Part shown: positions 53,537 to 58,059 of the stretch, one piece after another | How the letters are laid out: every line of letters starts with the position of its first letter | Position numbering within the stretch: the first letter of the stretch is position 1 | Source of the DNA: Baekduia soli | Lineage (GTDB): Bacteria; Actinomycetota; Thermoleophilia; Solirubrobacterales; Solirubrobacteraceae | Direction: 5' to 3' | Assembly (NCBI RefSeq): GCF_007970665.1 | Contig: NZ_CP042430.1 | Location: 3,348,001 to 3,412,000 of the forward strand | DNA: 64,000 nucleotides | Notes under the pieces: model-generated | What the model was told of the DNA's origin: nothing | The model's database searches: none | Seen by the model: the letters and a program-made list of their open reading frames with translations, nothing else | Position numbers and translations under genes: made by a program

Positions 53537-55636
53537 GTGTTCGTGCGCTGGGACAACCTGAAGATCGAGGCCGACGAGGGGACGCGGCTGCCGGGGTACC
53601 GCGACGGCGCGGTCGTTCGGCGCTTCGACGCGCCGGAGGCGCTCGACATGCGGTTCTACGAAGTGCGGGCCAAGAGCGCGCTCAACCGCGTGCCCGAGGC
53701 GTCGCGGATGCCGTTCCGCTGGACGATCAACCCGTATCGGGGCTGCAGCCATGCCTGCGTCTACTGCGTCCATCCCGACACGCCGGTGCTGATGGCCGAC
53801 GGGACGAACCGGGCCATCGGCCACCTGCGGCGCGGGGACGAGATCGTCGGCACCCGGGTGCAGGGGTCCGACCGGCGGTTCGTGCGCACGGTCGTGCTGG
53901 ACCGGTGGTCGACGGTGAAGCCGGCGCTCCGGCTCACGCTCGCCGACGGGACGGAGCTCGTGGCCAGCGGCGACCACCGGTTCCTCACCGACCGCGGCTG
54001 GAAGCACGTGACCGGGGCGACGGCGGGCACGGATCGGCGGCCGCACCTCACCCCGGGCGTCTCGCTGATGGGGTACGGCGCCCTGCCGGAGGGTCCGCTC
54101 AAGGACGAGGACTACCGCCGCGGCTACCTCTGCGGGATGGTGCGCGGCCACGGCTCCCTCGCCACGTACACATACACCTACCGCGGCCGAATGCCGGTGC
54201 TCCCCCGGTTCCGGCCCGGCCTGGCCGACGGGGAGGCGCTCGAGCGGGCCGAGCGCTACCTCGCGGGGGATCGCGTGAGCGCCCATCGCGCCGCGTTCGC
54301 GTCCCCGGGACGGCCGACGCGGCAGATCCGCACCGGGGCACCCGCCGGAGCCGAGCGCGTGCGCGAGCCGATCGCGTGGCCGAGGACGCCCAGCGCCGCA
54401 TGGCACAAGGGCTTCCTGGCCGGGGTCTTCGACGCCGAAGGGTCCTGGAGCGGTGGCGTCCTGCGCATCGCCAACGCGGATCCGGCCATGCTCGACACCA
54501 CGCTGCTGGCGCTCCGGCGCTTCGGGTTCGGCGCGGTGATGGGGCCGGCCGGCTCCAGCGGGTGCCGCACGGTGCGGGTCCGCGGCGGGCTCGTCCAGCA
54601 CCTGCGGTTCTTCGCGCTCACCGACCCGGCGATCACCCGCAAGCGCAGTCTCGCGGGCATGGCGGTCACGACCGACGCGGACCTGCGGGTCGTGTCGATC
54701 GAGCCGCTGCCCGGTGCGATGCGCCTGTGCGACATCACGACCGGCACGGGGGACTTCATCGCCGGCGGCGTCGTCTCGCACAACTGCTTCGCCCGCCCGA
54801 CCCACACCTACCTCGACTTCGACGCCGGGCGCGACTTCGAGCGCGAGATCGTCGTCAAGGTCAACGCGCCCGAGGTCCTGCGCGCGGAGCTGCGGCGACC
54901 GTCGTGGAAGGGCGAGCACGTCGCGATGGGGACGAACACCGACCCCTACCAGTGGGTCGAGGGGCGTTACCAGCTCATGCCCGGGATCTGGGAGGCGCTG
55001 CGCGATGCTCGCAACCCGTGCTCCGTGCTGACGAAGTCGCCGCTGCTGCTGCGCGACCTGCCCCTCCTGCGCGAGCTCGCCGCGGTGACCGACATCAGCG
55101 CCAACCTCAGCATCCCGACGATGGAGGAGAAGGCCTGGCGCGCGACCGAGCCGCACACGCCCCACCCGCGCGCGCGGATGGAGGCCGTCGCCGAGCTCAA
55201 CCGGGCCGGCATCCCCACCGGGATCCTCGTCGCGCCGCTCATGCCGGGCATCAACGACGACCCGCGCCAGGTGCAGGCCATCCTCGAGGCCGCGGCCGAC
55301 GCCGGGGCGACGAGCATCGGCGGGATCGGGCTGCACCTGCGCGGCGAGGTGCGTGGCGTGTTCATGGAGTGGCTGGCCGCCCGGCGGCCCGACCTCGTGG
55401 AGTACTACCAAGCGCTCTACGCCCGGGGCGCTTACCTGCCCAGGGCCGAGCGCGACCGTCTCAGCCGCCTGCTGTCCGCCGCCCGCACCCGGCCCATGGC
55501 GCCGTTCCGGCGAGACCCCGCCGACGCCTGGCCCGTCGACCGCGCCGCGCGTGCGTCGCCGGCCGACCCGTTCCGCGGTCCGCGGCCGCGAGCGGCACCC
55601 GCCCCGCCGGCGGCGGTGCAGGAGGCGCTGTTCTGA
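53537..55636 (+). CDS. Rv2578c-family radical SAM protein, interrupted by an intein
   Basis: The 699-residue precursor contains a host protein of about 359 residues. The N-extein has KSALNRVPEASRMPFRWTINPYRGC and the first two cluster cysteines (Cys70, Cys74). The C-extein continues CFARPTHTYLDFD, then GTNTDPYQWVE and LTKSPLLLRDLPLL. The family (SplB/Rv2578c-like) is of unknown function. The CX3CX2C site CSHACVYC is complete in the host protein only when the C-extein cysteine joins. GTG 53537 is used; GTG 53543 is equally good. Confidence 0.93.
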   Translation: MFVRWDNLKIEADEGTRLPGYRDGAVVRRFDAPEALDMRFYEVRAKSALNRVPEASRMPFRWTINPYRGCSHACVYCVHPDTPVLMADGTNRAIGHLRRGDEIVGTRVQGSDRRFVRTVVLDRWSTVKPALRLTLADGTELVASGDHRFLTDRGWKHVTGATAGTDRRPHLTPGVSLMGYGALPEGPLKDEDYRRGYLCGMVRGHGSLATYTYTYRGRMPVLPRFRPGLADGEALERAERYLAGDRVSAHRAAFASPGRPTRQIRTGAPAGAERVREPIAWPRTPSAAWHKGFLAGVFDAEGSWSGGVLRIANADPAMLDTTLLALRRFGFGAVMGPAGSSGCRTVRVRGGLVQHLRFFALTDPAITRKRSLAGMAVTTDADLRVVSIEPLPGAMRLCDITTGTGDFIAGGVVSHNCFARPTHTYLDFDAGRDFEREIVVKVNAPEVLRAELRRPSWKGEHVAMGTNTDPYQWVEGRYQLMPGIWEALRDARNPCSVLTKSPLLLRDLPLLRELAAVTDISANLSIPTMEEKAWRATEPHTPHPRARMEAVAELNRAGIPTGILVAPLMPGINDDPRQVQAILEAAADAGATSIGGIGLHLRGEVRGVFMEWLAARRPDLVEYYQALYARGAYLPRAERDRLSRLLSAARTRPMAPFRRDPADAWPVDRAARASPADPFRGPRPRAAPAPPAAVQEALF
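53765..54784 (+). mobile_element. Intein with LAGLIDADG endonuclease domain (340 residues)
   Basis: The intein runs from Cys1 (codon 53765, CVHPDTPVLMADG, block A) to the terminal His-Asn (VVSHN, block G) before Cys+1 at 54785. Block B is ASGDHRFLT with its conserved His, and block F is CDITTGTGDFIAGG. A homing endonuclease lies between. The second LAGLIDADG helix FLAGVFDAEG is intact (Asp299, Glu301). The first, YLCGMVRGHG, has His205 where an acid is expected, so DNA cleavage may be weakened. All splicing residues are present. Confidence 0.93.
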
Positions 55637-56914: not shown

Positions 56915-58059
56915 TCACGACACGGCGGCGCGTGTGAGGTATCGCTCGAGCAGCTCGGCAGCCTCGGTCTCGTTTCCGGGCATGAGGTGGCCGTATCGGT
57001 CGTACGTGATCGTGATGGAACTGTGGCCCATGTAATCGCAGAGGGCCTTGGCGTTGACGCCCGCGGCGATCATCAGCGAGGCATATGTGTGCCTGCAGTC
57101 GTGCGGCGCGACGCGCGTGAGCTTGGCGGCCTTCCACGCGTGGTCGCTGGCCTCTTGGATGCGCGGTGGCGTCCATGGCTCGAGGCCGTCGGGGCGAGCG
57201 AAGACGAGAGGGGTGCCGGGTGGCTGGCTGAGTCTGTGAGCTGCGAGGTGCTCGCGGAGCTGGGGGGAAGGGGAACACGTCGGCTGTGGCGATTCTTGGT
57301 CTCTTGGAGGCCCTCGTGCGGGTCCCACGACGCGAGAACGTCGATCGTGCCGGCCTGGAGGTCGATCGCGTTCCAGCGCAGCGCGAGCAGTTCGCCGCGG
57401 CGCAGGCCGGTGTAGAAGGCGGTCGCCCAGAAGGCTCGGTGTCGGGCGGGCGCGGCGTTGAGCAGTGTCGTGATCTCGACGGGGTGGGCGACGCGCTCGC
57501 GTCGGCCGCGGATGGCGGCCATTTTGAGCCCGGCGGTGGGGAGGACTTCGATCTCGCTGCGCTGGAGCGCTCGTGCGTAGACGGCTTGGAGCGCGGCGAT
57601 CGTGCCTCGGATGGTCGATGGAGCGTGCCCGGCGACAGTAAGGCGGTCGATGAGGTCTTGGAGGTCGAGCCGGCGGATGGCGTGGAACGGCTTGTCGCCG
57701 AGGTCGTCGAGCACGCGCAGCCTCAGAGCGCGTTCGTACGAGGTGATCGCGGCGGGCTTGTACCGGTCGCCGCCGCGTGTCGTGACGATGCCTGCTCGGG
57801 CCTCCTGAAGCCATCGCACGCACGCCTCGGCCAACGTGACTCGCTCGACCACGACGGCCCGGTCGCCGAGGCTCAGGGCGCGGTAGGCGTCGCGCCGCCA
57901 GTTCCGGGCCGCGGCCTGGGTTGAGAAGCTCTTGGTCGTCTTACGGCCGGTGGCCTTATCGAAGACGACGGCCCGGTAGGCCGGGGTGCACGTGCACCCC
58001 GAACCGTTCGTCTTGACCTTGCAGCCCGCGCGGTGGCGGACCTCGATCCCGGCGGCCAT
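56915..58059 (-). CDS. Tyrosine site-specific integrase (apparent one-base frameshift near 57262-57267)
   Basis: About 381 residues when repaired. An N-terminal Cys-containing arm (CTCTPAYRAVV) and SAM-like core-binding domain (TLAEACVRWLQEARAG) lead to the catalytic domain: Arg in TGLRRGELLALRW, then HDCRHTYAS, MGHSS, and the nucleophile in TYDRYGHLMPG. The frame breaks after RRVPLP; the rest is in the next frame. Adding one base to the six-G run at 57262-57267 joins both halves with no other change. It is probably intact in the cell. Confidence 0.87.

What the first reader, a model, noticed from the sequence alone, without database searches (positions are those of the whole stretch)
53765..54784. 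Intein sits on the third cysteine of the radical SAM Fe-S motif
The cluster site reads CSHACVY-C. Before splicing, the third position is occupied by the intein's own Cys1. After splicing, the C-extein Cys+1 takes its place, so the final [4Fe-4S] site is rebuilt by the splicing reaction. An intein here can hold the enzyme inactive, and Fe-S, zinc or oxidation at these cysteines could in turn control splicing. Such inteins are known in the family, but the coupling of splicing and cluster formation is worth study.
Basis: partly seen in the sequence, partly recalled or inferred. Interest (0 to 1): 0.7.

Follow-up and report, generated by a model that had tools for sequence, protein, structure and literature searches.

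The report
Intein splitting an iron-sulfur enzyme motif
A self-splicing protein insert sits exactly on the third cysteine of an enzyme's iron-sulfur site, so the enzyme should work only after the insert removes itself; the arrangement is already known, but it recurs in unrelated enzymes, and two sister species carry a likely programmed reading-frame shift at the same spot instead.

Summary
ORF 53537-55636 is an Rv2578c-family radical SAM protein, and a 340-aa class 1 intein occupies 53765-54784 between GCSHACVY and CFARPTH. Cys1 completes CxxxCxxC before splicing and Cys+1 does so afterwards. NCBI already curates this arrangement (NF038136). Among 98 related genomes every insert found (148-448 aa) lies at the same codon, and 55 genes are empty there. 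Sizes, decayed endonucleases, patchy presence and one supported cross-family intein pairing mark a mobile element in decay. Control of splicing by redox or Fe-S is untested here. Precedent exists: the Pyrococcus MoaA intein is blocked by a Cys-3/Cys1 disulfide, and the same pair is present here. Mini-inteins contain no cysteine except Cys1, so any thiol or metal switch must use Cys1 and extein cysteines. Related inteins sit on the third cysteine of PA0069-family, phage SPL-like and SPASM proteins; phage B12-type proteins carry inteins on the second or third. Unexpectedly, two intein-free congeners carry a +1 frameshift, CTT-TTA-Y, at this motif. TTA is 1 in 100,675 codons and no tRNA-Leu(UAA) was found in one of them; the downstream frame looks selected. 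This is probably programmed frameshifting.

The parts
53537..53764 (+). N-extein of the radical SAM protein (76 aa, GTG start), ending GCSHACVY; holds cluster Cys1 (C70 = C-7) and Cys2 (C74 = C-3)
53744..53746 (+). C70, first cysteine of CxxxCxxC (position -7)
   Evidence: sequence; invariant in 40 precursors
53756..53758 (+). C74, second cysteine (position -3), the redox-trap partner in the MoaA precedent
   Evidence: sequence; invariant in 40 precursors
53765..54784 (+). intein, 340 aa, Cys1 to Asn
53765..53767 (+). Cys1 of the intein; third cysteine of the motif before splicing
   Evidence: sequence; invariant column C77
53966..53977 (+). block B SGDH (Ser in place of the usual Thr; catalytic His147)
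   Evidence: SGDH or SADH/SGEH in nearly all family inteins
54122..54157 (+). first LAGLIDADG-type motif GYLCGMVRGHGS; the catalytic-position Asp of RGDG is His here
   Evidence: alignment
54413..54442 (+). second LAGLIDADG-type motif FLAGVFDAEG, acid retained
54719..54784 (+). blocks F and G, MRLCDITTGTGDFIAGGVVSHN
54785..54787 (+). Cys+1 (C417), third cluster cysteine after splicing
   Evidence: sequence; invariant column C417
54785..55636 (+). C-extein, rest of the radical SAM domain, with stop codon
   Evidence: PF04055 match; exteins align with spore photoproduct lyase

Best explanation
A mobile class 1 intein of the Rv2578c-radical SAM lineage sits in its homing site, the codon of the third cluster cysteine. 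Inferred steps: Cys1 attacks the Tyr-1 peptide bond, Cys+1 (the future third cluster ligand) takes over the acyl chain, Asn cyclises, and the ligated protein reads GCSHACVY-CFARPTH, so the [4Fe-4S] site is only complete after splicing. Its position is best explained by homing into the most conserved coding DNA of the gene and by the need for a Cys+1 nucleophile. Because Cys-3 and Cys1 form a CxxC pair, splicing is expected to be slowed by a disulfide or a bound metal, as in the MoaA intein; here this is more likely a chemical by-product than a selected switch.
For: Exact boundaries and splicing blocks. Predicted HINT fold closest to Ssp DnaB mini-intein (Z 21, 1.5-1.7 A), with an I-DmoI-like endonuclease domain and exteins that align with spore photoproduct lyase across the insert (Z 16). 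Only one insertion codon in all relatives; 33 complete inserts of 148-448 aa, 4 partial, 55 empty. Mini-inteins without endonuclease keep all splicing blocks. The endonuclease of the window intein lost one catalytic Asp (RGHG). Patchy presence: at least 21 changes on the extein tree. Intein tree crosses host families (L047 with L318, support 95/82). Invariant C70, H72, C74, Cys1, H415, N416, Cys+1 in 40 precursors. The cluster loop (69-74, 418-421) has pLDDT under 50 in the precursor model but not in the intein-free homologue.
Against: Splicing itself is not shown. A few bad tips (for example a block B His lost in one annotation-like sequence, L075) show that some copies may be decaying. The trees are partly unresolved and the extein tree is a quick one. 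The pLDDT contrast is weak evidence.
Confidence: 0.85

Rival explanations
1. The intein is kept as a true regulator: oxidation (C-3/Cys1 disulfide) or metal or Fe-S binding at C-7/C-3/Cys1 blocks splicing, and the enzyme is released only when the cell is reducing or iron-replete.
For: Same Cys-3/Cys1 geometry as the P. abyssi MoaA redox trap (PMC10663303, PMC3922620); the redox-trap structure 3nzm is among the structural matches. His at -5 is invariant, as in Mtu SufB where His-5 affects splicing (PMC8891592). Several lineages keep a splicing-competent-looking mini-intein after losing the endonuclease. Inteins recur on rSAM cluster cysteines.
Against: C-7, C-3 and His-5 are conserved because the enzyme needs them, with or without intein, so their presence is no evidence of a switch. 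Mini-inteins have no cysteine of their own. Presence is patchy within genera, so closely related bacteria do without it. Mini-inteins also persist simply because loss must be precise.
Confidence: 0.13
2. The intein is splicing-dead and the gene is a pseudogene in this genome.
For: The window intein has lost one endonuclease Asp and has non-consensus Ser in block B.
Against: Block B Ser is shared by the whole family; all splicing residues and the full extein are intact; no internal stop; extein identity to relatives is high.
Confidence: 0.05

Closest known systems
NCBIfam NF038136 rSAM_Rv_intein (intein-containing Rv2578c family radical SAM protein)
   Same: same host family, same insertion codon, full-length hit of 701.6 bits over the 700-bit cut-off
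   Different: nothing essential; the window copy has a damaged first LAGLIDADG motif
Pyrococcus abyssi MoaA intein (redox-responsive; literature)
   Same: intein in a radical SAM enzyme; a Cys at -3 of the N-extein pairs with Cys1 (PMC3922620, PMC10663303)
   Different: archaeal MoaA, not an Rv2578c protein; I did not have its sequence, so identity of the exact motif position rests on the reviews and on family knowledge
Phage radical SAM inteins at the third cysteine (L124, L125, L127, L132, L136, L139)
   Same: 28-41% identical over the full length of the intein, same cysteine
   Different: hosts are other COG1533-like or SPASM proteins of phages
NCBIfam NF045703 rSAM_Tes_intein
   Same: another curated intein-bearing radical SAM family (listed)
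   Different: only a weak hit of a phage protein; site not examined here

Membership tests
class 1 intein | Cys/Ser/Thr at 1, block B His, penultimate His and terminal Asn, Cys/Ser/Thr at +1 | tested here: met
   C77, SGDH147, H415-N416, C417
class 1 intein | HINT fold | tested here: met
   model aligns with Ssp DnaB mini-intein 6frg/1mi8, Z 21
class 1 intein | self-splicing activity | not testable with these tools
   needs expression
NF038136 intein-containing Rv2578c family | score over the curated 700-bit cut-off | tested here: met
   701.6 bits, 9e-211
Rv2578c radical SAM (NF038135) | score over the 430-bit cut-off | tested here: inconclusive
   410 bits with the intein in place; no relative in the order, intein-free ones included, passed it either
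radical SAM superfamily | CxxxCxxC and partial TIM barrel | tested here: met
   motif in sequence; PF04055 over cut-off; exteins and intein-free homologue match spore photoproduct lyase
active LAGLIDADG homing endonuclease | both catalytic acids | tested here: not met
   RGHG in motif 1 where active-looking relatives have RGDG; DAEG kept in motif 2
redox- or metal-controlled intein | splicing changes with redox or metal | not testable with these tools
   only the candidate residues C-3 and Cys1 can be shown

The most novel reading that the evidence does not exclude
The third-cysteine codon of this enzyme is a recurrent post-transcriptional gate: protein splicing in some species of the genus and a programmed +1 frameshift at a UUA codon lacking its cognate tRNA in two sister species, both making completion of the Fe-S motif depend on a conditional step.
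Probability: 0.2. Interest if true: 0.75.

Novelty: new member of a known kind. Interest (0 to 1): 0.42.

Why it matters
It gives a simple test of whether inteins on metal-site cysteines sense redox or iron: Cys1, C-3 and C+1 are the only conserved thiols, and natural mini-inteins of about 150 aa with Cys1 as their sole cysteine make clean reporters. The recurrence on rSAM cluster cysteines in several families shows the MoaA case is not a one-off. The +1 frameshift in two congeners, if confirmed, would be a new chromosomal case of recoding at a codon without its tRNA.

Tried and rejected
Third cysteine as the exclusive target: a control pattern for the second cysteine found phage B12-binding rSAM proteins with inteins there (L286, L289, L295, L296, L308), so I do not claim exclusivity. 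Unbiased sample of phage inteins: 0 of 80 were at a radical SAM motif, so these sites are a minority. Patterns that recover third-Cys inteins are conditioned on the site and say nothing about frequency. Intein-internal redox switch: rejected for the family, since mini-inteins hold only Cys1; Cys322 in block F is shared by a few relatives only. First tRNA-Leu pattern searches had a gap bound that missed even the known tRNA-Leu(CAA); corrected. Virus Rctr197k 'radical SAM protein-like' hit: its exteins look like a helicase, not rSAM; the label probably comes from the intein.

Full report
OBSERVATION. The 699-codon ORF 53537-55636 follows recA, recX, rny and miaB in the order of the window. It encodes a radical SAM protein interrupted by 340 codons, 53765-54784. 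The N-extein ends ...NPYRGCSHACVY, the insert begins CVHPDTPVLMADG and ends GDFIAGGVVSHN, and the C-extein begins CFARPTHTYLDFD. The ORF passes NF038136 (701.6 bits, cut-off 700) and the insert passes TIGR01445.

STRUCTURE. The predicted precursor (40 natural homologues in the alignment, mean pLDDT 78.9, pTM 0.54) has a HINT domain closest to the Ssp DnaB mini-intein (Z 21.2, 1.5 A over 134 residues, model 75-418) and an I-DmoI-like endonuclease domain. Its exteins, on both sides of the insert, align with spore photoproduct lyase (Z 16.2, model 2-659, 269 residues). An intein-free homologue predicted alone gives the same closest fold, spore photoproduct lyase. In the precursor model the cluster loop (69-74) and 418-421 have pLDDT below 50; the intein-free model has no such drop there. 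This is weak support for the loop not forming before splicing.

FAMILY SURVEY. NF038135 was searched in 151 related genomes: 98 had a match. The loci were read at the motif. 33 have a complete insert, always between [YF] and the third Cys; 4 more are cut by contig ends or N runs; 55 are empty; 2 carry a +1 frameshift (below). No insert was found anywhere else in these genes. Insert sizes run 148-156, 210, 261, 307-314, 340-352 and 448 aa. The short ones lack the endonuclease but keep Cys1, SGDH, the YDITTGTGDFIANGVVSHN end and Cys+1. In a phylum-wide sample of 296 genomes, intein-bearing copies again sit at the same codon and are scattered over many families; four of them are in PA0069-family hosts in f20, two of which scored over that family's own cut-off. 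The extein tree needs at least 21 gains or losses, and the intein tree joins copies from different host families. This is the signature of homing, decay and loss.

CYSTEINES. In 40 precursors C70, H72, C74, Cys1 and Cys+1 are invariant. Mini-inteins have no other cysteine. Hence a thiol or metal switch, if any, must use C-7, C-3, Cys1 and Cys+1. The precursor itself offers a complete CxxxCxxC through Cys1, so cluster or metal binding before splicing would tie up the splicing nucleophile; this is inference. In P. abyssi MoaA a Cys-3/Cys1 disulfide blocks splicing under oxidation (PMC10663303, PMC3922620), and His-5, present here as H72, affects splicing in Mtu SufB (PMC8891592). All of these extein residues are needed by the enzyme anyway, so their conservation is not evidence for regulation.

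RECURRENCE. A viral-contig pattern for CxxxCxY-C1xxGDT found inteins on the third Cys of several phage proteins: SPL-like L119 (131-aa mini-intein), L124, L125/L127/L136, L132, SPASM-type L139/L142 and B12-type L144; a wider third-Cys pattern added the B12-type L309. Six of these inteins are 29-41% identical to the window intein over its full length. The control for the second Cys found B12-binding rSAM proteins with HNH-bearing inteins there (L286, L289, L295, L296, L308). So cluster cysteines as a class are hit, the third more often in the families close to this one. An unbiased sample of 80 phage inteins had none in rSAM motifs. Insertion into active-centre motifs is a general habit of inteins (PMC5050341).

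FRAMESHIFT IN CONGENERS. Genomes G002 (a Solirubrobacterales groundwater MAG, contig JACRMD010000174.1) and G005 belong to the genus of the window. Both have the syntenic gene without intein. Both read TGY-CTT-TTA-Y-TGC-TTY: one extra base between the second Cys and Tyr, with both flanking frames otherwise intact to the end of the gene. In 400 kb of G005, TTA is 1 of 100,675 codons and CTT 0.21%. Of 43 tRNAs found in G005 the leucine anticodons are CAG, CAA, TAG and GAG, with no TAA. A tRNA pattern finds tRNA-Leu(UAA) in G000, G001, G004 and G008 but not in G005 or G006; G002 is an incomplete draft. CUU_U is the conserved release factor 2 shift site (PMC5009743). Between G002 and G005 the downstream frame has pN 0.12 and pS 0.30, and the gene-wide peak of rare codons lies at the shift site in both. 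A third +1 case, AAA-TTA-C, is in Actinomadura rudentiformis (L111), and only these were found in the genome-contig scan; in the order's 232 genomes only G002 and G005. I read this as probable programmed +1 frameshifting (about 0.6). The alternatives are an ancestral disabling indel with residual constraint, or for Actinomadura a sequencing error. Any link to the intein at the same place is speculative: the altered site may also resist homing.

VERDICT. The finding is real and well described. It is a new member of a curated family with a known precedent for the proposed redox coupling. The coupling itself is open and testable. The congeners' frameshift is the most surprising thing seen.

Noticed in passing
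L098 about 875-890 (G005:C1:685678-685689) and L096 (G002:C64:10507-10518, minus strand): Intein-free congeners carry a +1 frameshift CTT-TTA-Y between cluster Cys2 and Cys3, with TTA almost absent from the G005 sample and no tRNA-Leu(UAA) found in G005: probable programmed frameshifting.
   Followed up: yes
L111 5259-5303: Actinomadura rudentiformis has an independent +1 shift (AAA-TTA-C) at the same codon of the same family; error or recoding not decided.
   Followed up: partly
L286, L289, L295, L296, L308: Phage B12-binding radical SAM proteins with inteins on the second cluster cysteine; those scanned (L289, L295, L308) carry an HNH domain instead of LAGLIDADG.
   Followed up: partly
L116 2501-3505 (NZ_CP129127.1): Unannotated Streptomyces plasmid ORF with an intein starting at the last Cys of GCDRVSKGCDNC, a Gp37/Gp68-like motif.
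   Followed up: no
L115 1292-4561 (KX853510.1): Virus Rctr197k gene labelled radical SAM-like has helicase-like exteins; the label probably comes from the intein.
   Followed up: no
window 57073-58059 (-) to 63052: Tyrosine integrase and small genes with one weak HTH match downstream of an SDR gene: possible remnant of an integrated element.
   Followed up: no
L100 (G017): 448-aa intein whose extra length is a low-complexity stretch after block B.
   Followed up: no
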